From: a virus
Strand: one strand, 5' to 3'
Virus record (IMG/VR): IMGVR_UViG_3300005470_000020
Coordinates: 1-24,299 of that record
DNA: 24,299 nt
Positions 1-22,058 of this stretch are shown piece after piece; the first letter of the stretch is position 1; each line of letters begins with the position of its first letter. The notes under the pieces were generated by a model. That model worked only from the letters and a program-made list of their open reading frames with translations. It made no database searches and was not told the origin of the DNA. The position numbers were made by a program, and so were the translations under genes.

Positions 1-1808
1 TCAGAATTTATTGTTAATACACCATCAAATATAACATTATTATCAAAATGCCAACTATCCTCACTTTCATCCCAATAGAACTCTGCGTTTGCATAATCAC
101 CTCGACGGATAATAACACCGCTATCTTCAGTTGGAACACCAGATGTAAAATTGGAATTCAGTTCAACTTTATTATCAGCAATAGTAATAGTTTCAACGTC
201 TATTGTGGTAACATTACCACTTACTGTTAAATCTCCTTCAATAACAACACTTCCAAATGTTGGATTCGTGTTTATATATTCTCTGGTTAATAAAGTTTCA
301 AAATCTGTTTTAAATTGTGAAATATCAACCCCGTCAACATTGCCATTTATAGAAATGTTTCCATTAACATTTAAATTTCCATTTAAATAATCTCCATCAG
401 CGTTGATAAACCTTTCATCTGCTTCTGTTTCAGTATAATATCTCACATCGTGCGTATGACTATCATTTAAAACAGCAACATTTATATCCATGGATGCGTT
501 AGAAACATCTGTAAACACTACATTAGCACTCCCACTTACATCACCATTTAAATTTATATCTAATTTTGGCGATGGTTTATTTGTAGTATTATTCCAATTT
601 AAATAATAACTTCCATGTTGTCCATCTAATAGATCAGCATTAAGATTTTCTACTAAAGTATTAGATGATATTATAATATTGTTTGCTGACATTGTTTCAA
701 ATGTTACATTTGAATTTTCAGCTATTCCTAAAATATTTAAAATATCCCCTATTGTGTTAGCAGTTAATATATTTCTACCTACAGAAGTACTATCATATAT
801 TTCATCACTGCTCATACTCAATCTTTTAGGATTTACGAATATTTTACCATGTTGTGAATGTGAATATAAAACTATACCTACTCTAAATACCTTATATCCA
901 CTTGGTGGTTTTATAATAGTCATTCCACCGCTAACTATATTTGAAAGATAGACAATATCACCATCTGAAAAGGATGATGTATCAATGTTATTAACAATGC
1001 CTATAGCTGTAACATAACCAGTTTCGTTATTATTTATATCGTGGGTAGCCATACCAATAGTACACTCACAATCACCATTGCCCAACGCTTTTGATATAGT
1101 AGGGGTTTGTCCTAATGCTCCTGTAATTTTTACAACTTCACCATCATATATAGTTTCACCACTATTATTTCTACATCTGACAACAACCTCTTGTCCTATG
1201 TTTATTTTAACTTCGTTATTATCATTATAATAACTCAATGTATGTGAAACACTATCATAAAAAACCTTTCCTTCTACCCATTCATCATCTTCTACTAAAT
1301 TAAATAATTCTTCATTAATGTTAATGCTGTTAAAAACTACGTTAGCAGATGAATGAACATTTTGTGGAAGTGTTAAAACTATATCGCTTGCCTCCGATGC
1401 GGCTCCACTTGTATAAATTTGATTATTACTACCAAAAACATTTCTAACATATTTACCAATAGTATCAACACCTAATTCTACACTATTTTCCTGTATTGTA
1501 GTGCTAAAGGTAATGTTAGATGATCCATCAAAGGAAAAACTACCGTTAACATCACCAGTCAATTCTATAGTAACATCAGAATTTAAGGCTAATGCAGTGT
1601 TAGAAACACCTGAAAATGTGTTTCCAATAAAATTATCAGCGGTAACATTTCCATCAACGTCAACATTGGAATTGAAATCATAATAACCGCCTGTATTTGT
1701 TTTTATAACATAATTATTGTATTCTAATACCAATTCATTTATTTTCAATCTCAAATCATTGATTGAATTATTAGCATAAACTAATGTAATATTATTATTA
1801 GATGACAT
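1..1808 (-). CDS. Long tail fibre / structural fibre protein (3' end beyond window)
   Basis: Open for 602 codons from an ATG at 1808-1806 to the left edge, so the C-terminus is missing. The start follows directly on the stop codon of the membrane-protein gene to the right (TAA then ATG). The N-terminus (MSSNNNITLVYAN) leads into repeated short beta motifs of the type D-G-N-V-T, G-D-V-N-G-S and L-N-G-N-L-N-V-N-G-N, typical of trimeric beta-rich phage fibres. A central stretch (roughly residues 180-320) has the look of a beta domain found in phage decoration or fibre proteins. Near the end of the visible part is DSGVIIRRGDYANAEFYWD, a motif I recognise from T4-like cyanophage tail-fibre proteins. 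The role is inferred to be host contact at the baseplate periphery. Which T4 fibre it replaces cannot be told. Confidence 0.8.
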   Translation of the reverse strand, partial: MSSNNNITLVYANNSINDLRLKINELVLEYNNYVIKTNTGGYYDFNSNVDVDGNVTADNFIGNTFSGVSNTALALNSDVTIELTGDVNGSFSFDGSSNITFSTTIQENSVELGVDTIGKYVRNVFGSNNQIYTSGAASEASDIVLTLPQNVHSSANVVFNSININEELFNLVEDDEWVEGKVFYDSVSHTLSYYNDNNEVKINIGQEVVVRCRNNSGETIYDGEVVKITGALGQTPTISKALGNGDCECTIGMATHDINNNETGYVTAIGIVNNIDTSSFSDGDIVYLSNIVSGGMTIIKPPSGYKVFRVGIVLYSHSQHGKIFVNPKRLSMSSDEIYDSTSVGRNILTANTIGDILNILGIAENSNVTFETMSANNIIISSNTLVENLNADLLDGQHGSYYLNWNNTTNKPSPKLDINLNGDVSGSANVVFTDVSNASMDINVAVLNDSHTHDVRYYTETEADERFINADGDYLNGNLNVNGNISINGNVDGVDISQFKTDFETLLTREYINTNPTFGSVVIEGDLTVSGNVTTIDVETITIADNKVELNSNFTSGVPTEDSGVIIRRGDYANAEFYWDESEDSWHFDNNVIFDGVLTINS

Positions 1809-2108
1809 TTATTCTTTCCTTTCTTTTAATTCTATTTCTAAAAGTTTATTTCTAAGTTCAACATTTTGTCTTTCAGCCCTTTTCAATTTAGCTCGTTCTA
1901 TTGCAAATGTTATCGCAACGTATGACGATATTATTGTCAAGAGAGACAAAATAAGTTGAAAAAGAATTGGTATAGTTGGTAAAACAGTATCCAACATTTT
2001 ACTTAACCATGAATACACGTTTAATAATATTAAAAATATCCAAGAGATTATAAAATCCTTTAGATTATGGGGTGTATGTAAATCATTGCTTATATGTGAA
2101 AGTGGCAT
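1809..2108 (-). CDS. Small two-TM membrane protein with C-terminal coiled coil; holin candidate
   Basis: The 99-residue protein has two hydrophobic segments, about residues 20-37 (IISWIFLILLNVYSWL) and 43-68. A strongly charged tail (about 70-99) of Glu, Lys, Arg and Leu is likely helical or coiled coil. Both ends would lie on the same side of the inner membrane. It sits between a conserved small phage gene and the tail-fibre gene in the late transcription unit. Two TM helices, a charged C-terminus and late expression fit a class II-type holin, but this is inference from architecture only; it does not resemble T4 holin gpT. It could equally be another late membrane protein. Confidence 0.6.
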   Translation of the reverse strand: MPLSHISNDLHTPHNLKDFIISWIFLILLNVYSWLSKMLDTVLPTIPILFQLILSLLTIISSYVAITFAIERAKLKRAERQNVELRNKLLEIELKERKE

Positions 2109-2109
2109 A

Positions 2110-2499
2110 TCAATTATTTTCTTTTATTTTGAAATATAATTTATCGTCAAATATAATGTCGGATGTAAATATCATTTTTTGTTGATGATTATAAAAACTA
2201 CTTGGCAACATTTTCAAATACAATAAACAAGATTTTAATTGTGGGTAATAATAATCTTCCACTTTATAAAATAATATATTCAATCCGGCATCCTCGCCAA
2301 AGGTGTTGAAAAGAATTTTAAAATGATTTATCAACATTTTATAATTTATTTCCTTTCCACAGACATGTTTACGAAATAATGTCTTTATAAATTTTGGTGT
2401 ATTGCAATCATTAAAAAATTCCTTTTCACTCATGCAATGATTGTTTTTATAATTCTCTTTGCAATAATCAAAGAAATTATATTCGTTTAGTATCTTCAT
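2110..2499 (-). CDS. Conserved T4-like phage protein downstream of terminase, function unknown
   Basis: The 129-residue soluble protein is rich in Phe, Tyr, Asn and Lys. The central part (INHFKILFNTFGEDAGLNIL) followed by FYKVEDYYYPQLKSCLLYL resembles a small conserved protein that I recall beside the terminase genes of T4-like cyanophages and pelagiphages. No catalytic motif or membrane segment is seen. One base separates its stop from the start of the membrane-protein gene. Its start lies only a few bases from a TATAAATA octamer at 2506-2513. Probably a late protein with a packaging or virion role, but that rests on position alone. Confidence 0.65.
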   Translation of the reverse strand: MKILNEYNFFDYCKENYKNNHCMSEKEFFNDCNTPKFIKTLFRKHVCGKEINYKMLINHFKILFNTFGEDAGLNILFYKVEDYYYPQLKSCLLYLKMLPSSFYNHQQKMIFTSDIIFDDKLYFKIKENN

Positions 2500-2505
2500 T
2501 TTTTA

Positions 2506-2513
2506 TATTTATA
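2506..2513 (-). promoter_or_regulatory. T4-type late promoter octamer before the 2110-2499 gene
   Basis: The minus strand reads TATAAATA, the T4 late-promoter -10 consensus, in the 27-base gap after the terminase C-half. With T4 spacing, transcription would start almost on the ATG at 2499, giving a nearly leaderless mRNA. AT richness makes chance matches common, so location in a gap is the main support. Confidence 0.45.
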
Positions 2514-2526
2514 AAATTGATATAAT

Positions 2527-4281
2527 TTACCATAAGAAGCCGTTAAAATTATTATCCCACCTTTCATCTTTAACCCATCCATTTCTCAGATCTATCAAAT
2601 CTTCATCATCTATCAAACCTGCCTTCTTTTCAAAATTTGTCATAAAATTAATTCGCTTTAATTTATTTATAATATCATCTTCATGTTGATTACGTATATC
2701 TTCTCCTACATTTTTTTTCAAATCTTTGAAATAATCCTGTGTGGTCATCCATGCGAATAACACAAGCGTCATAACAATATCATCATTCCTACCAATTTCA
2801 GCTTCAAAACTATTTTTAACTTTTATAAAGGTTGATAATTCTGATAATGTCGCATAATCAACTATCTCTAATTTATCATGTTCAATGAGTGTTTTAAGAT
2901 TAGAACAACCAATATTTTTTACACTTGAACTCATCTTAACACCAATCATAGATTTTCCATCATTTCCATAACATATTCTCTGTTTTTTATTAGTGACTTC
3001 TGTCCAAAGAATATGTTCATATTCAAATTCATTCCAAAGAATATGACCAATTTGATGACCGTATTCATTATTTTCTATTAACAGCGTAGCATAATTATAA
3101 TTTCTCCCAATTCTATCAATAATTTCTGGAAATACTAAAGGTGTTATTTTATTGCATCTATATATTGCGACTTGTTTATATTTATTGCCTGTAATATCTA
3201 TAACGCTAAAACTACTATAATCCAATTCAACGCCTTTAGCTGTATCAATAGTTATTAAATATTTATGATGGTTTTTAGGTCTATCATATATTTTTATATC
3301 TTCTTCCTCTGCAATAGGATCTTCAAATTTACTCATCATATTTTGTAATATTTCAGGATTTATCAATCCTTTGGTAGAACTTTCAAAACTACATTCATGC
3401 TCTTGCATAAATTGTTGCAGGGATGTGTTTTTAATTTTTTCCTGCTTCCACGCATCGTCACGACCAGGAACTTCGTGCCACAACACCTTTACAGGAGCAT
3501 AACTATTTCTGCCATGTATAGCATCTGACCACAATTTATGATATAAATTATAGCCGTTTGGTGTAGATATAATAATCAATTTAGTTGTTTCACCAGATGA
3601 TATGGTTTCAAAGGCAGAGGCATAGAAATCATCAATAATACTGGCATCAATGAATGCAAATTCATCAATTAGAACCAAGTTAGATGATTTACCCCTTAAA
3701 GAAGTTTTAGAGGTAGCACGTGAAAATATTTTAGATTTATTTTCAAGATGTATTTCGTGTGCATCGTATCTCGATACGCCCTGTTGCAACCATTCTGGAA
3801 GATTTTCAAATGCAAGTTTAATCATATCTAACAAGTTTTTAGCCGCGTCATCATCTTTAGAAAGAATAGCAACTTTATAATACGATTTAAACAACGCATG
3901 ATGAAGAGCAACACCAGCGGTTATTGTCGTGTTATGACTTGCTATTCCATCTGTAAAATAAATATGACCATCAACATTCATCAAATCATACATATTATCA
4001 TATTTATCAGTAATCTCAACTTCTTTAACAGTAACATATCCATCGACAGATAAAATTTTGTCACCACAATTCAAATCTTTTGCATATACTTCATCACCAT
4101 CAATCAATATTAAAATGTGTTCATCTGCGCATATAAATTCTTTATCATTTTCTTCAAACTTTATTATATATTCCTGAAATTCTATAGTTTTAGCAACACC
4201 ATCAAAATCCTTCCACCCGTCAGGTGTCCAAATTTCATATTCATCAGAAAATTTTTCATCTATAAATTTTTCCACTTGCAT
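2527..4281 (-). CDS. terL: Split large terminase gp17, C-terminal half preceded by C-intein
   Basis: 584 residues. Residues 1-117 are the C-terminal part of an intein. A block-B-like region is ICADEH (His55). Block F/G runs through VDGHIYFTDGIASHN, with His106, penultimate His116 and terminal Asn117. Thr118 is the +1 nucleophile. There is no endonuclease domain. Residues 118-584 are the rest of a T4-type terminase ATPase-nuclease: it opens with TTITAG, the continuation of the P-loop, then Walker B NLVLIDEFAFI (Asp206, Glu207), coupling motif STPNG (239-243), and RNase H-like nuclease acidics Asp346 (ITIDTAKG), Glu403 (LLIENNEYG) and Asp500/501 (RNDDIVM). After trans-splicing to the 5010-5372 product the enzyme would be 552 residues, normal for gp17. 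It lies 728 bases downstream of its N-half with an opposite-strand gene between, and has its own TATAAATA at 4301-4308. Confidence 0.95.
   Translation of the reverse strand: MQVEKFIDEKFSDEYEIWTPDGWKDFDGVAKTIEFQEYIIKFEENDKEFICADEHILILIDGDEVYAKDLNCGDKILSVDGYVTVKEVEITDKYDNMYDLMNVDGHIYFTDGIASHNTTITAGVALHHALFKSYYKVAILSKDDDAAKNLLDMIKLAFENLPEWLQQGVSRYDAHEIHLENKSKIFSRATSKTSLRGKSSNLVLIDEFAFIDASIIDDFYASAFETISSGETTKLIIISTPNGYNLYHKLWSDAIHGRNSYAPVKVLWHEVPGRDDAWKQEKIKNTSLQQFMQEHECSFESSTKGLINPEILQNMMSKFEDPIAEEEDIKIYDRPKNHHKYLITIDTAKGVELDYSSFSVIDITGNKYKQVAIYRCNKITPLVFPEIIDRIGRNYNYATLLIENNEYGHQIGHILWNEFEYEHILWTEVTNKKQRICYGNDGKSMIGVKMSSSVKNIGCSNLKTLIEHDKLEIVDYATLSELSTFIKVKNSFEAEIGRNDDIVMTLVLFAWMTTQDYFKDLKKNVGEDIRNQHEDDIINKLKRINFMTNFEKKAGLIDDEDLIDLRNGWVKDERWDNNFNGFLW
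3931..4281 (-). other. C-terminal split-intein fragment (IntC, 117 aa)
   Basis: The coding part for residues 1-117 of the terminase C-half. It begins with its own ATG, contains WTPDGWKDFDGV near residues 18-29, the block-B region and the splicing C-terminus ASHN before Thr. The long IntC that includes block B means the break point lies very near the intein N-terminus. From memory this matches the layout of AceL-TerL-type atypically split inteins, where IntN is about 25 residues and IntC about 104. Confidence 0.92.
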
Positions 4282-4300
4282 ATTTAATATCTTTTTATTA

Positions 4301-4308
4301 TATTTATA
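4301..4308 (-). promoter_or_regulatory. T4-type late promoter octamer before terminase C-half
   Basis: TATAAATA on the minus strand, with expected transcription start about 14 bases before the ATG at 4281. An independent late promoter here is needed in principle, because the interrupting gene on the other strand separates this half from the gp16/N-half transcription unit. Confidence 0.5.
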
Positions 4309-4312
4309 TAAT
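4307..4312 (+). promoter_or_regulatory. Possible -10 element (TATAAT) for the 4331-4921 gene
   Basis: A perfect TATAAT on the plus strand 18 bases before the ATG at 4331, overlapping the opposite-strand late octamer. Only a poor -35 (TTAATA at 4284-4289, 17-base spacer) accompanies it. The two signals would make a compact divergent promoter. Confidence 0.3.
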
Positions 4313-4330
4313 CAAATAAAATTAAATAAC

Positions 4331-4921
4331 ATGATTGTAAAAATAGGAAAATATAAAAATTTTTTTGGGATCTATCATTTAGCAGATTTGTTTCAAAAAA
4401 TTGGATTCAAAGAAGAAACGTGCGAAAATATCGGGGATTTTCTTGGAGAAACATTTTTAAAGGATTTTTTTCTTTGGATTAATAAGAAGAATAAAAGAAA
4501 GACATTTGTAAAAATTCATAAATATGATGTTTGGAGTTTAGATCATACTCTTGCTTTAATTATATTGCCAGCATTGAAAGAATATAAAAACCAAATGTTA
4601 GAATCTCCTTCTCATCCAACAACAGACGAAATAAAAAATTTTAATGATTGGTTGAACATCATTAATAAAATGATATGGAGTTTTGAACATATTGTTAATG
4701 ATAGTTGGCAAGATAAATATTACAATTGGCATAAAACAAAAACATGGTTGCCAAAACCAAAAAGAGATGAAAAGCCTTATGATAAGGCATTAATAATTGG
4801 CTTTTATGACGAAGAAAGAATCGACGGAACACCAGACTACAAAGGATTAGAGACTAAAGAAAACGAAATTAGGAAAGGTTTGGAATTGTTTGGAAAATAT
4901 TTTACATTTTTATGGAATTAA
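4331..4921 (+). CDS. Conserved T4-like phage protein of unknown function inserted between terminase halves
   Basis: The 196-residue protein has KIHKYDVWSLDHTLALIILP at residues 61-80, a MIWSFEHI stretch, and a C-terminal end of GLELFGKYFTFLWN. I recognise the combination 'D-x-W-S-x-D-H-T-L-A-L-I-I-x-P' plus a final 'G-L-x-L-F-G-K-Y' from conserved hypothetical proteins of T4-like cyanophages. No LAGLIDADG, HNH, GIY-YIG or very-short-repair-like nuclease motif is visible, so it does not look like a homing endonuclease. It runs opposite to the terminase genes and exactly fills the space between the two halves. The stop codon overlaps the start of a 33-codon frame at 4912. Confidence 0.8.
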   Translation: MIVKIGKYKNFFGIYHLADLFQKIGFKEETCENIGDFLGETFLKDFFLWINKKNKRKTFVKIHKYDVWSLDHTLALIILPALKEYKNQMLESPSHPTTDEIKNFNDWLNIINKMIWSFEHIVNDSWQDKYYNWHKTKTWLPKPKRDEKPYDKALIIGFYDEERIDGTPDYKGLETKENEIRKGLELFGKYFTFLWN

Positions 4922-5013
4922 TTAAAGGAACTGAAAATCAAAGTAAATCTGTAAGATGTTCTATATCTTTAGAATCACTTATTTCTAAATATTACAACAA
5001 GAAAGAAGATTAA
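4912..5013 (+). CDS. Short ORF (33 aa) overlapping the end of the 4331-4921 gene
   Basis: MELIKGTENQSKSVRCSISL begins a 33-residue frame that overlaps the preceding stop by 10 bases and ends 4 bases into the 3' end of the terminase N-half on the other strand. The start has no convincing ribosome site, so it may be translated by coupling or not at all. Its last residues (NKKED) mirror the end of the intein fragment (NKKEN) only because both lie in an inverted repeat. Function unknown. Confidence 0.35.
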   Translation: MELIKGTENQSKSVRCSISLESLISKYYNKKED

Positions 5014-5027
5014 TTTTCTTTCTTGTT
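4996..5027. terminator. Perfect 12-bp inverted repeat at the convergent gene junction
   Basis: Left arm 4996-5007 (AACAAGAAAGAA) and right arm 5016-5027 are exact reverse complements around an 8-base loop. It covers both stop codons of the converging 4912-5013 and 5010-5372 frames. Position suggests a two-way transcription terminator separating the terminase N-half from the inserted gene. The stem has few G-C pairs and there is no clean U-run, so this is inference. Confidence 0.45.
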
Positions 5028-5117
5028 CAGTCTTTTATAGAATTCTCCAATGGAAATTTCTTCAATTTTTCCATTGGCTTTATTTTTTATCTTTATCATG
5101 CTCTCTTCTCGACAACA
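5010..5117 (-). other. N-terminal split-intein fragment (IntN, 35 aa)
   Basis: The last 35 codons of the terminase N-half, starting at Cys86 (CCREESMIKI) directly after the Walker A GK and ending GEFYKRLNKKEN before the stop. Cys1 plus the block-A-like beginning identify it as an intein N-end. The ending resembles, as I recall it, the YKRLA end of AceL-TerL IntN. Confidence 0.9.
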
Positions 5118-5372
5118 CTTGCCAACCTGTCTTGACGTAAGCATAATAGTATATCTATTATCAATAATAGTATCAATCATTTTGTGCTGATAATTACGTA
5201 GTTTAAAATCGACAAGGCCATGATCTACGTTATCAATTTTAACATATTTTTCAATAAAATATGTAGAATTGGTTGCACAATTTGCATATTCGTTTAAAAG
5301 TTCTTCAGTCCATTCAATATTTTGATTTACAGGTTTTAGATTTTCATTACCTTTATATCCTCTTTTAGCCAT
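5010..5372 (-). CDS. terL: Split large terminase gp17, N-terminal half followed by N-intein
   Basis: 120 residues. Residues 1-85 are the gp17 N-extein: a basic N-terminus, then DFKLRNYQHKMIDTI (adenine-binding/Q-motif region) and the P-loop MLTSRQVGK, cut after Lys85. Residues 86-120 are IntN, starting with Cys86. On its own the product cannot hydrolyse ATP, because the P-loop is incomplete and Walker B is on the other polypeptide. The ATG at 5372-5370 overlaps the gp16 stop by one base (TAATG) and has a strong GGAGGTGG ribosome site inside the end of gp16, so gp16 and this half are co-translated. T4 gp17 has SRQLGKTT at the same place, which fixes the splice junction as GK | TT. Confidence 0.95.
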   Translation of the reverse strand: MAKRGYKGNENLKPVNQNIEWTEELLNEYANCATNSTYFIEKYVKIDNVDHGLVDFKLRNYQHKMIDTIIDNRYTIMLTSRQVGKCCREESMIKIKNKANGKIEEISIGEFYKRLNKKEN

Positions 5373-5743
5373 TATCTACCACCTCCAGCTTCCTTTATTT
5401 TCTTTTCAATCATTTTTTGTACGTCAGTAGTGGTTGCTAATATTAGCGTATTATTGTTTATTTGTTCTGAATCTTTTTCGTCATTTTGACTTTCATTTTC
5501 CATATCAAATAATATTTTATTGTTTGCTGAAATCACGTTGGTGAGATTGATATATGCTTCAAAAAATCTGGCGTTTTCTGTTTCTTCGGCTATATTTTTG
5601 ATAGTTTGTGCCACATGTATACTATCATCAATGACCTTTTTTATGTTTTTTCTAGCGTATTCATAATCTTCGCCTCTTTTTATTTCTTTATGTTTTTCTA
5701 TAGAGGAATCTTCTTCTCCATATACTACTATTTCCTCACTCAT
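5372..5743 (-). CDS. gp16: Small terminase subunit, gp16-like
   Basis: The 123-residue protein has a central helical part (EYARKNIKKVIDDSIHVAQT to FFEAYINLTNVISANNKILFD, about residues 28-80) that matches the pattern of T4-type gp16, where an oligomerising helical core carries an ARxN...AFEVL...AN motif. A polar, Glu/Gln/Asn-rich linker and a basic C-terminal helix (VQKMIEKKIKEAGGGR) follow. gp16 forms a ring that recognises DNA and stimulates gp17. It overlaps the upstream gp15 paralog by 4 bases (ATGA) and the downstream terminase N-half by one. The N-terminal residues are acidic and variable. Confidence 0.85.
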   Translation of the reverse strand: MSEEIVVYGEEDSSIEKHKEIKRGEDYEYARKNIKKVIDDSIHVAQTIKNIAEETENARFFEAYINLTNVISANNKILFDMENESQNDEKDSEQINNNTLILATTTDVQKMIEKKIKEAGGGR

Positions 5744-6450
5744 AAATCATCTCCTGTTAAAATTTCAGATTCATCTGGTATATATTTTTCTTCTGAATCT
5801 AAATCTAAATAATTAATATAAATTGTTTCTATTTGTTTTCTTAATTCTTCTTCTGTTTTAAAAAACCATGCTTTACAGTTAAAATATAAAGTAGTGGTTA
5901 TAATTCTTTCTTCATCAATCTTTCCATCATAATTTTCATCATTCATTATTATATTATTTAATGATAAGGATAAATCAAACGACTTATTAAAATCGTCTAA
6001 TAATAAAGATGAGAATTTTAAATGTGGTGAAAAATGTGGAATTATTTGTTCTAATATTTTTAAATTATCGCTTTGTTTTTTTGTTATTATATTAAGTTCG
6101 AATGTTAAATTATATGGCACTGGTGTGTATGCCTTTTTGTCAGTTCCTATTGAAATTGTGTTTGTTTTATTTAATTTCCTTTCGCTATCATATTTATAAT
6201 CAACTATATTAAAGGATAATCTTGGTAGAGTCATTTTAACACCCTTTTTTGATGTTTCTCTTCTCAGATATCTTAATATTAGTTTATCCTTTTTAGCATA
6301 ATTTATAGGAACTTTAATGCTTTTTATAAGTGTTTTAGAATTATCATCTACAATATTCATATCTTCTGAACTATATTTATTAACATAAATATTATTAAAT
6401 ATAGTTCCAAATATGACTATATATTTTTTATGTAATTTATTATTTATCAT
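5740..6450 (-). CDS. gp15: Tail completion / sheath terminator protein, gp15 paralog B
   Basis: The 236-residue protein follows the T4 gp15 pattern: FGTIFNNIYVNKY, then IKSIKVPINYAKKDKLILRY, TLPRLSFNIVDYKYDSERKLN, a PVPYNLTFELNIITKKQSDN strand, ILEQIIPHFSPHL and a C-terminal strand TTTLYFNCKAWFF. gp15 caps the tail tube and sheath after assembly and joins tail to neck. It starts 11 bases before the end of a longer gp15-like gene, and the two share the same motif order, so this is a second, shorter copy. It may form a mixed ring with the first, or one copy may have taken a new role. Confidence 0.82.
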   Translation of the reverse strand: MINNKLHKKYIVIFGTIFNNIYVNKYSSEDMNIVDDNSKTLIKSIKVPINYAKKDKLILRYLRRETSKKGVKMTLPRLSFNIVDYKYDSERKLNKTNTISIGTDKKAYTPVPYNLTFELNIITKKQSDNLKILEQIIPHFSPHLKFSSLLLDDFNKSFDLSLSLNNIIMNDENYDGKIDEERIITTTLYFNCKAWFFKTEEELRKQIETIYINYLDLDSEEKYIPDESEILTGDDL

Positions 6451-7363
6451 AAAGAACTCTTGATGTGTCTATTGTTGTTTGATCTTGGAACATATCATTA
6501 TAAAAATAATCATAATGTCTTTCAAGATTTATTATAGTGTTTTCTGTGGTTGGGGCAACGGCAGATTCTATTCCATCCATTTTTTCTCCGCTTTGATAAT
6601 CTAATAAATTAACAATTATATTTTTTATAATCTTTTCCTTTTTAATATTTTTAAAAAACCATACTCTCATACTAAATTCTAATGTGTCTATAAAAAGAGA
6701 TTCTTTATCAAAATTTGTATTTTCTATATGTTCTCGTTTAACATTTTTTAAAACTATTGGTGTATCTAAAACAAATTCTATTCTTCCTTTATAGTCAAAT
6801 GGGTTTGTAAATTCTTCAGGTGCAAAAACATATTTTACACTTCTATATAATTCTGGTGTAAAATTTGGTAAAATTTGTTCTAATATATTATCAGAATCTA
6901 TTTGTTTTTTATTTATTATATATAGTTTAAATCTTAATATATACGGAACTCTTTCATATAATGAAAAAACATAATCCTTTGTATAGGATTCTATTGGATA
7001 ATCGTCAAATTCTGAAATTGGCGTTGAAAGATCAAGAGGAAAGTTTGTGTCGTTTATATCGTTATATCCATAAGTTTTATTCAATCTGTTTCTTTTTGTT
7101 TCAGTGTCGTAATATAAATCCCCTATCCATTCAAACCCCATTCTTGGTAACGTAGTTTTTATGACATCATTAATGTCATTAGAATCTATTCCACGTCTTA
7201 TATATCTTTGTATATGTTTATCTTTATTACTATACATAATAGGAACTTTTATAAATTGTATGACAGAATCCTTAGAATCTATACGCTCTATAAAAATATT
7301 TTCAAAACATGAACCAAATGTATTTATTGCAGTTTGAATAGATTTCCAACTAAAATATGACAT
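6440..7363 (-). CDS. gp15: Tail completion / sheath terminator protein, gp15 paralog A
   Basis: The 307-residue protein has the gp15 signature in order: FGSCFENIFIERID, IQFIKVPIMYSNKDKHIQRY, TTLPRMGFEWIGDLYYDTETKRNRLN, VPYILRFKLYIINKKQID, NILEQILPNFTPEL, and a late strand LEFSMRVWFFKN. Compared with paralog B it has extra residues in the middle (about 95-130) and a longer C-terminal tail (about 265-307). Its start is the first after the terminator and late-promoter pair at 7374-7422, so gp15A, gp15B, gp16 and the terminase N-half probably form one late operon. Confidence 0.85.
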   Translation of the reverse strand: MSYFSWKSIQTAINTFGSCFENIFIERIDSKDSVIQFIKVPIMYSNKDKHIQRYIRRGIDSNDINDVIKTTLPRMGFEWIGDLYYDTETKRNRLNKTYGYNDINDTNFPLDLSTPISEFDDYPIESYTKDYVFSLYERVPYILRFKLYIINKKQIDSDNILEQILPNFTPELYRSVKYVFAPEEFTNPFDYKGRIEFVLDTPIVLKNVKREHIENTNFDKESLFIDTLEFSMRVWFFKNIKKEKIIKNIIVNLLDYQSGEKMDGIESAVAPTTENTIINLERHYDYFYNDMFQDQTTIDTSRVLYDK

Positions 7364-8088: not shown

Positions 8089-8880
8089 TTATCCTATTTT
8101 CCATCTTGGTGGCATACATTCATTCTGTATGGTAATTTTTGCATCGTCTATATCTCCAACCGCTTCGTTATAAATTCCTTGACCATTTAACTGTTGTCCA
8201 CCCATCAAAGGTATGGTAGAATATTTTTTAAGAATTTCACCCCATTGTTTTTTAACCATAGCAGTTGCTAAATCTAAAAATAACCTGTTCGATAATATTT
8301 TTCCATAAACTTCTGGATCGACTATAGCAGTTGCTTCGTATGTTAAATATTGTCCAGATTCAAACAACATATCCCAATCTCCATAATAATACAAACGTCC
8401 TTTATGACGGTTAAATTTTATATTTTTCTGATTCTTAAATAAGAAACTTATATTAGCCAATTGCTCTCTCATCAACATAAATTCTGTGACACTGGAAAGA
8501 TACATACCAGTTCCACTTGCATAATCAGAAAAGTTTAATCGATTAAACATCATATAATCAATATTTTCAAATAGATTTTTAGCAATAGTTAAAGGCTGTA
8601 ACACTTTATGAATTTCTAATATAAGATTATCGTTTATTTCAATATATTTTTGATCTATTTCTTGTTCTGTCAATTCATGTGCTATATAAATAATTTCAGT
8701 GCCTTCATTATTATAATCTCTCCAATATTGTAAAGCATCTGCAATTCTTGCCAATATTTGGTCATCGGTTACATTTACTTGTATAACTGGTTCCCCTAAT
8801 TTCTCTCTAATATATGTGACAACGTCATTTGCATTATTTGGCAATGTTATCTGCGAAGATGTTCCGTATGAATATGACAT
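8089..8880 (-). CDS. gp13: Neck protein gp13
   Basis: The 263-residue protein has ANDVVTYIREKLGEPVIQVN, then DDQILARIADALQYWRDYN near the N-terminus, and later GRLYYYGDWDMLFESGQYL with a C-terminal NECMPPRWKIG. The start contains the helical head-completion arrangement of T4 gp13, which binds the portal after packaging. The first 14 codons lie inside the right-hand part of a 123-bp tandem duplication, whose second copy carries an orphan duplicate of this start at 9003. No strong ribosome site precedes the ATG. Confidence 0.88.
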   Translation of the reverse strand: MSYSYGTSSQITLPNNANDVVTYIREKLGEPVIQVNVTDDQILARIADALQYWRDYNNEGTEIIYIAHELTEQEIDQKYIEINDNLILEIHKVLQPLTIAKNLFENIDYMMFNRLNFSDYASGTGMYLSSVTEFMLMREQLANISFLFKNQKNIKFNRHKGRLYYYGDWDMLFESGQYLTYEATAIVDPEVYGKILSNRLFLDLATAMVKKQWGEILKKYSTIPLMGGQQLNGQGIYNEAVGDIDDAKITIQNECMPPRWKIG

Positions 8881-9083
8881 ATTATATTAAGTTAAGCTGT
8901 TCTTTTCCACATGTAACATGTTATGTATGGCTGAATATTTTTATTTTCACCTGAAACGCCTTGGCAATGTTATCTGCGAAGATGTTCCGTATGAATATGA
9001 CATATTATATTAAGTTAAGCTGTTCTTTTCCACATGTAACATGTTATGTATGGCTGAATATTTTTATTTTCACCTGAAACGCC
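8838..9083. repeat. Exact 123-bp tandem duplication across the collar-protein/gp13 junction
   Basis: Positions 8838-8960 and 8961-9083 appear identical base for base. Each copy holds the last 22 codons plus stop of the collar protein and the first 14 codons of gp13. Only the outer ends are used: the intact collar gene ends in the right copy and the intact gp13 starts in the left copy. The left copy therefore contains a dead collar tail (stop equivalent at 8892-8894). The right copy contains a dead gp13 start that would give an 18-residue peptide (8947-9003). Confidence 0.95.
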
Positions 9084-21647: not shown

Positions 21648-22058
21648 AAGATAAGAATAAAAACTTCATTAAGAGATAATGGGAAATTTAGAAATTGTGC
21701 TACCAACATCGCCAACGGGAAATTTAGAAATTGTGCTACCAACATCGCCAACGGGAAATTTAGAAATTGTGCTACCAACATCGCCAACGGGAAATTTAGA
21801 AATTGTGCTACCAACATCGCCAAAGCATCTCCATTTGAACTCATAAATGAAAGGCCAGACATTTATGGTTTTAAGGCGGTTTGGGGTGAATATATTAGAA
21901 CTTTGAAAGAAGCGATGGATTCTTTGGTATTTTTGTTTTTGTTTTTGATTGGCACTATTTTATTTCCGATTAGTCCGTTAATTCGTGCATATTTTTCTAT
22001 AAAGAGGGCAAAAAAAGAAGTACAAAATAATAAAATTAATAATGAATCTAAAAAATAA
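21648..22058 (+). CDS. Small membrane protein frame running through the 36-bp repeats; start unresolved
   Basis: This frame is open from 21648 to the TAA at 22056-22058. It reads four copies of GKFRNCATNIAN, then ASPFELINERPDIYGFKAVW-GEYIRTLKEAMDS, a hydrophobic helix (LVFLFLFLIGTILFPISPLI) and a basic tail. The text flows like one protein, but no ATG occurs in frame before 21915. The nearest ATG (21644, MKDKNKNFIKR) is one base out of register and stops at 21679. Either an indel has broken the start, a rare start is used, or only the short form from 21915 is made. Confidence 0.45.
   Translation, partial: KIRIKTSLRDNGKFRNCATNIANGKFRNCATNIANGKFRNCATNIANGKFRNCATNIAKASPFELINERPDIYGFKAVWGEYIRTLKEAMDSLVFLFLFLIGTILFPISPLIRAYFSIKRAKKEVQNNKINNESKK
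21679..21846 (+). CDS. Repeat-encoded ORF (55 aa), alternative frame over the 36-bp repeats
   Basis: An ATG at 21679 opens a frame of four 12-residue repeats (GNLEIVLPTSPT) ending in KHLHLNS. It is joined by TAATG to the 11-codon frame at 21644. It competes with the membrane-protein frame for the same DNA; its codons have more A/T third positions, but its C-terminus looks like noise. Real coding status is uncertain. Confidence 0.3.
   Translation: MGNLEIVLPTSPTGNLEIVLPTSPTGNLEIVLPTSPTGNLEIVLPTSPKHLHLNS
21681..21824. repeat. Four tandem copies of a 36-bp unit
   Basis: Units begin at 21681, 21717, 21753 and 21789 and are identical apart from the last base of the fourth. There are no spacers, so this is not CRISPR. 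As 36 is divisible by three, copy-number change keeps all frames. Two plus-strand frames and one minus-strand frame are open through the whole array. Confidence 0.97.

What the first reader, a model, noticed from the sequence alone, without database searches (positions are those of the whole stretch)
2527..5372. Large terminase made as two polypeptides by an atypically split intein
Seen: the gp17 N-half ends 35 residues after a Cys placed directly behind the Walker A GK. A distant gene begins with 117 intein residues ending His-Asn, then Thr and the rest of gp17. Joining GK to TT restores SRQVGKTT as in T4 SRQLGKTT. Known: AceL-TerL and related TerL inteins are split very close to the N-terminus. 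Inference: this is another member with a longer IntN (35 versus about 25 residues) and should trans-splice.
Basis: partly seen in the sequence, partly recalled or inferred. Interest (0 to 1): 0.92.

Follow-up and report, generated by a model that had tools for sequence, protein, structure and literature searches.

The report
Split-intein packaging motor in T4-like phage
This phage makes its DNA-packaging motor as two separate proteins that carry matching halves of a self-splicing element and almost certainly get stitched together; it belongs to a widespread but apparently little-described family of such split elements sitting in the ATP-binding loop, so it is a new variant of something known rather than a new kind of thing.

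Summary
gp17 (TerL) is encoded as an N-half (85 extein + 35 intein residues, 5010-5372, minus) and a C-half (117 intein + 467 extein residues, 2527-4281, minus), 728 bp apart. The fused 152-residue intein aligns end to end with uninterrupted inteins at the same Walker A site (GK^TT). The C-fragment model is a HINT fold close to VidaL and CatC. A second contig is identical over 5.8 kb.

Two parts of the interpretation need correcting. A 35-residue IntN is not unusual: GOS-TerL has 37, and 18 other split inteins at this site have 30-46. And it is not an AceL-TerL sibling: the AceL/GOS consensus fragment is 63% identical to an intein at another TerL site (QE^CEFLGS) but 32% to this one. This intein belongs to a separate Walker A clade, found split and unsplit, and also in phage Clp-like protease, SbcC and DnaB.

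In most relatives with a wide gap, an endonuclease-like gene fills it; a 94%-identical relative has a zinc-finger, HNH-like ORF there. The window instead has an unrelated helical phage gene on the opposite strand. Trans-splicing is inferred, not shown. Verdict: real, a new variant of a known kind.

The parts
5118..5372 (-). gp17 N-extein, 85 aa, ending SRQVGK (first part of Walker A)
   Evidence: starts on the last base of the gp16-like gene 5372-5743
5013..5117 (-). IntN, 35 aa, Cys1 (CCREESMIKIKNKANGKIEEISIGEFYKRLNKKEN); stop codon at 5010-5012
   Evidence: 88% identical N-half in L032/L033; same layout in 18 relatives
3931..4281 (-). IntC, 117 aa with its own ATG, ending ASHN
   Evidence: CatC E 1e-9; HINT fold pLDDT 91.8, Foldseek VidaL and CatC
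2527..3930 (-). gp17 C-extein, 467 aa, beginning Thr+1-Thr, with Walker B and the RNase H-like nuclease domain; stop included
   Evidence: Pfam Terminase_6N and Terminase_6C
4331..4921 (+). 196-aa gene between the halves on the opposite strand, phrog_11543 family, function unknown; occupies the place where relatives carry a homing-endonuclease-like gene
   Evidence: all-helical model, no PDB match; 79 other homologous loci show no TerL or intein nearby
4996..5027 (.). 16-bp-arm inverted repeat across the N-half stop codon; possible two-way terminator for the convergent N-half and 196-aa genes
   Evidence: function inferred
4301..4308 (-). TATAAATA (T4 late-promoter-like) about 20-27 nt upstream of the IntC ATG; may give the C-half its own late transcript
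   Evidence: weak: the motif is frequent by chance in 28% GC DNA

Best explanation
The two genes encode complementary precursors of one T4-type TerL. IntN (35 aa) and IntC (117 aa) assemble into a HINT fold. Cys1 accepts the N-extein as a thioester, Thr+1 takes it over as a branched ester, the terminal Asn cyclises, and the released exteins form a normal bond, giving ...SRQVGK-TTITAG... and a 552-aa motor. Until splicing happens, the Walker A loop is cut between its Lys and Thr, so neither half can be an ATPase. The element is a member of a phage intein family that inserts at GK^T/S of P-loop ATPases, exists split and unsplit, and often carries an endonuclease-like gene between the halves. In this phage that gene has been replaced by an unrelated phage gene. 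Shown: gene layout, intein motifs, fold of the C-fragment, kinship, gap content. Inferred: trans-splicing in vivo, the class 1 chemistry, the loss of mobility.
For: Halves and junctions. Uninterrupted homologs cover 1-152 in one frame at the same insertion point, including an annotated intein in Klebsiella phage Magnus (PMC6763660). Conserved Cys1, block B 'ADxH', 'MYD' and 'SHN'. IntC model pLDDT 91.8, pTM 0.79; Foldseek VidaL E 1e-7, CatC E 1.5e-6. 18 other distinct split inteins at the same site, IntN 30-46 aa, IntC 113-125 aa where its start is clear. Window groups with split relatives L038 and L039. Endonuclease-like genes in the gap of relatives. Identical second contig. N-half sits right after gp16, the normal gp17 place.
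Against: No splicing assay or peptide data. The first eight IntN residues differ strongly between the window and L032 (6 of 8 codons change the residue) although the rest is conserved. IntN here has Glu-Ser where many relatives have Asp-Thr at residues 5-6. The record is a 24.3-kb fragment, so an intact terL elsewhere cannot be excluded.
Confidence: 0.92

Rival explanations
1. Genes-in-pieces: the two halves work as separate subunits without splicing, and the intein parts are relics.
For: A phage ribonucleotide reductase split by a homing endonuclease works in pieces (cited in PMC10448857). The first IntN residues vary between relatives.
Against: The break lies between Lys and Thr of Walker A, and IntC would stay on the new N-terminus. 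Catalytic residues C1, ADxH and SHN+T/S are kept in the window and in its split relatives. IntN residues 9-30 are conserved against L032 (17 of 22 codons identical, 3 synonymous, 2 not).
Confidence: 0.04
2. RNA-level joining: a group I or group II intron removes the gap, as in the ICP1 terL intron.
For: TerL is known to be interrupted by introns (PMC10448857).
Against: No intron family in window 1800-6000 at E up to 1; the only hit is a sub-threshold microRNA match. The flanks encode intein motifs that are uninterrupted protein in relatives. RNA joining would leave 152 intein residues inside TerL, so an intein would still be needed.
Confidence: 0.01
3. Degenerate or dead locus: a fragmented terL, with an intact copy elsewhere in the genome.
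For: The record is a fragment; the usual endonuclease-like gene is missing.
Against: Both frames are intact, the locus is in the normal gp16-gp17 place, an identical second contig exists, and the same layout recurs in other phages.
Confidence: 0.03
4. The 196-aa gene is itself a new type of homing endonuclease and the locus is an active mobile element.
For: It sits exactly where relatives carry an endonuclease-like gene, in the same orientation as the zinc-finger, HNH-like ORF of the close relative L032.
Against: All-helical model with no PDB match, no nuclease family hit, and 79 homologous loci with no TerL or intein of this family nearby.
Confidence: 0.05

Closest known systems
AceL-TerL / GOS-TerL atypically split inteins (and the CatC consensus)
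   Same: T4-type TerL host, short IntN and long IntC; published split is after the first helix (S2); GOS is 37/115 aa, very near 35/117
   Different: Different insertion site (Walker A GK^TT here; QE^CEFLGS inferred for AceL/GOS), Thr+1 instead of Cys+1, only 32% identity to CatC
Uninterrupted TerL mini-inteins of Ackermannviridae (e.g. Klebsiella phage Magnus)
   Same: Same insertion point, Cys1 and Thr+1, about 28-32% identity along the whole length
   Different: One gene, not split
TerL1-a inteins of mycobacteriophages (PMC5050341)
   Same: Inserted between the P-loop Lys and Thr of a terminase
   Different: Different terminase family, in one piece; sequence kinship not tested here
[quoted passage not shown]
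   Same: Gene broken by a split intein, with an endonuclease-like gene between the halves in relatives
   Different: Here the gap holds a gene with no nuclease signature, on the opposite strand

Membership tests
Class 1 inteins (HINT splicing domain) | Nucleophile at residue 1 | tested here: met
   Cys1 directly after GK; invariant in alignments
Class 1 inteins (HINT splicing domain) | Block B His, penultimate His with terminal Asn, Cys/Ser/Thr at +1 | tested here: met
   ADEH, ASHN, Thr+1; A, D, H of block B and SHN invariant over 49 IntC sequences
Class 1 inteins (HINT splicing domain) | HINT fold | tested here: met
   IntC model pLDDT 91.8; VidaL, CatC, gp41-1 best hits. IntN was not modelled with it
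Class 1 inteins (HINT splicing domain) | Protein splicing activity | not testable with these tools
   needs expression
Atypically split inteins (short IntN) | IntN of about 15-37 aa and a long IntC on separate polypeptides | tested here: met
   35 and 117 aa on separate genes; range from PMC13014065. The S2 position is assigned from length and alignment only
AceL/GOS-TerL allele | Same insertion site in TerL | tested here: not met
   Window is at GK^TT; CatC is 63% identical to the intein at QE^CEFLGS in L017 and its C-extein begins Cys-Glu. AceL's native exteins could not be read directly
AceL/GOS-TerL allele | Cys+1 | tested here: not met
   Thr+1; Cys+1 in AceL and GOS (PMC11766414)
AceL/GOS-TerL allele | Closest kinship by sequence | tested here: not met
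   Walker A clade separate, 96/98 support, root unknown; 32% identity to CatC
Fractured-gene split-intein loci | Homing endonuclease gene in or near the gap | tested here: not met
   Window gap gene has no nuclease signature or fold; relatives do carry nuclease-like genes

The most novel reading that the evidence does not exclude
Walker A split inteins are a broad phage family in which splitting and re-joining recur, the gap becomes a niche into which ordinary phage genes can move after the endonuclease is lost, and the split persists because it keeps the packaging ATPase off until both halves are made late in infection.
Probability: 0.15. Interest if true: 0.75.

Novelty: new variant of a known kind. 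Interest (0 to 1): 0.5.

Why it matters
Naturally split inteins with a short IntN are prized for protein labelling and only a handful are characterised. The Walker A clade supplies at least 19 distinct IntN sequences (this one included) with Ser or Thr at +1, a different context from AceL and GOS. It also holds split and unsplit forms at one site, so how an intein becomes split can be studied directly, and it shows a case in which the usual endonuclease-like gene is replaced by an unrelated gene while the split is kept. The papers I could search describe neither this clade nor such a replacement, but the library holds only open-licence papers.

Tried and rejected
Group I/II intron: no Rfam hit. 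AceL-TerL sibling: rejected by insertion site, +1 residue and identity. 196-aa gene as a nuclease: no family or fold support. C-half of the L032 phage: not on its contig, and a scan with its zinc-finger, HNH-like ORF returned only the two known contigs, so that this ORF lies between two halves in that phage is inferred. Direct confirmation of AceL's native exteins: the papers are not held. Late-promoter matches were not used as strong evidence, since the motif is common by chance in AT-rich DNA. One Pfam call on other ATPase hosts failed on coordinates; PHROGs was used instead.

Full report
Observation. The window is a 24.3-kb virus record that carries a T4-like late module: baseplate wedge proteins, head-tail adaptor, head closure, tail sheath stabilizer, gp16 and gp17. 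gp17 is in two genes on the minus strand. The N-half (5010-5372) starts on the last base of gp16 and ends with 35 residues that begin at a Cys right after the Walker A GK. The C-half (2527-4281) starts with 117 residues that end in SHN, followed by Thr-Thr and the rest of gp17. Joined at GK/TT the product is 552 aa. A second contig, L002, has the same layout and no difference between window positions 1578 and 7374.

The two ends are halves of one intein. Given as a fused 158-residue query (152 intein plus 6 extein residues), it matches uninterrupted inteins in the TerL of Ackermannviridae over its whole length at about 28-32% identity. These sit at the same point, after GK and before TT, and one is annotated as an intein in Klebsiella phage Magnus (PMC6763660). 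In the viral contig L040 an uninterrupted intein is 41% identical over all 152 residues. Cys1, the ADxH of block B, MYD and SHN are conserved. The IntC model (pLDDT 91.8, pTM 0.79) is a HINT fold; the best solved matches are VidaL and CatC, and a profile search finds VidaL, gp41-1 and CatC.

It is one of many. A scan with the site's intein alignment gave 411 relatives, of which the best 80 were read. Eighteen distinct IntN sequences end in a stop 30-46 residues after GK^, and IntC, where its start is clear, is 113-125 residues. One of these loci, L115, has a broken IntC frame. Uninterrupted forms at the same site are also present. In a tree of 32 inteins the Walker A set separates from inteins at two other TerL sites (96/98), the window groups with split L038 and L039, and strongly supported branches force at least four changes of the split label; the root is not known. 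Same-family inteins also precede P-loop-type continuations in a Clp-like ATP-dependent protease (L045, L087, L108), an SbcC-like subunit (L095) and a DnaB-like helicase (L068).

It is not an AceL-TerL sibling. The CatC fragment, a consensus of AceL-TerL and GOS-TerL, is 63% identical to the IntC at QE^CEFLGS in L017 and 32% identical to the window; its C-extein in the PDB entry begins Cys-Glu. AceL and GOS use Cys+1 (PMC11766414), the window Thr+1. That AceL and GOS sit at QE^CEFLGS is my inference from these facts. An IntN of 35 is within the published range of 15-37 (PMC13014065), and GOS-TerL is 37/115 (PMC11766414). Terminase inteins between the P-loop Lys and Thr are already known in one-piece form in mycobacteriophages (PMC5050341).

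The gap. In most split relatives with a wide gap, the gap holds a roughly 320-430 aa gene on the same strand as the halves, several with zinc fingers and a Vsr/DUF559/MTES_1575-type nuclease domain, some hits being weak. Two contigs (L032, L033) about 94% identical to the window share the N-half but differ from window position 5026 downward, where they carry a zinc-finger ORF (340 aa in L032) on the opposite strand with what I read as an HNH-like motif; only the zinc finger is supported by a Pfam hit above its cut-off. Their contigs end before any C-half. The window instead has a 196-aa gene of phrog_11543 on the opposite strand. It is predicted to be all-helical (pLDDT 79.7), has no PDB match, and its 79 other homologous loci show no TerL or intein of this family nearby. 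The simplest reading is that the endonuclease was lost and replaced by an unrelated phage gene while the split intein stayed; direction and order of events are inferred.

How it most likely works. Assembly of IntN and IntC, N-to-S acyl shift at Cys1, transfer to Thr+1, Asn cyclisation and ester-to-amide shift are taken from established class 1 intein chemistry, not shown here. The consequence that unspliced halves cannot hydrolyse ATP follows from the break between the Lys and Thr of Walker A.

Limits. No splicing has been shown. The genome is a fragment. The literature library holds only open-licence papers, so lack of a description of the Walker A split family is weak evidence of novelty.

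Noticed in passing
L017:1767-5213: One TerL with two interruptions: a large one-frame intein at GK^ whose first residue is Ala, and a split AceL-type intein at QE^CEFLGS with a GIY-YIG gene between its halves.
   Followed up: partly
L024:628-3778 and L025:1-3154: Vibrio phages 1.255.O and K474 carry split TerL inteins at the AceL-type site, with a GIY-YIG domain fused behind IntN in L024; annotated as 'coil containing protein', 'terminase large subunit' and 'hypothetical protein'.
   Followed up: partly
L026:1251-4362: Escherichia phage kaaroe (Krischvirus) has a split TerL intein next to Walker B (YIDE^CAFI) with a TnsA-like/endonuclease I-like domain fused behind IntN.
   Followed up: partly
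L045, L068, L087, L095, L108: The same intein family lies at the P-loop of phage Clp-like protease, DnaB-like helicase and SbcC-like genes; in several the IntC starts its own ORF.
   Followed up: partly
window 8838-9083: Exact tandem duplication of 123 bp between two late genes; could be real or an assembly artefact.
   Followed up: no
window 21681-21823: Four exact head-to-tail copies of a 36-bp unit.
   Followed up: no
window 5740-6450 and 6440-7363: Two adjacent genes both match the tail sheath stabilizer family (gp15-like), suggesting a duplication.
   Followed up: no
window 705-1302: Contig L002 lacks this stretch inside the 602-aa open ORF 3..1808(-), while the next 6 kb are nearly identical; the ORF looks like a variable fibre-type gene.
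   Followed up: no
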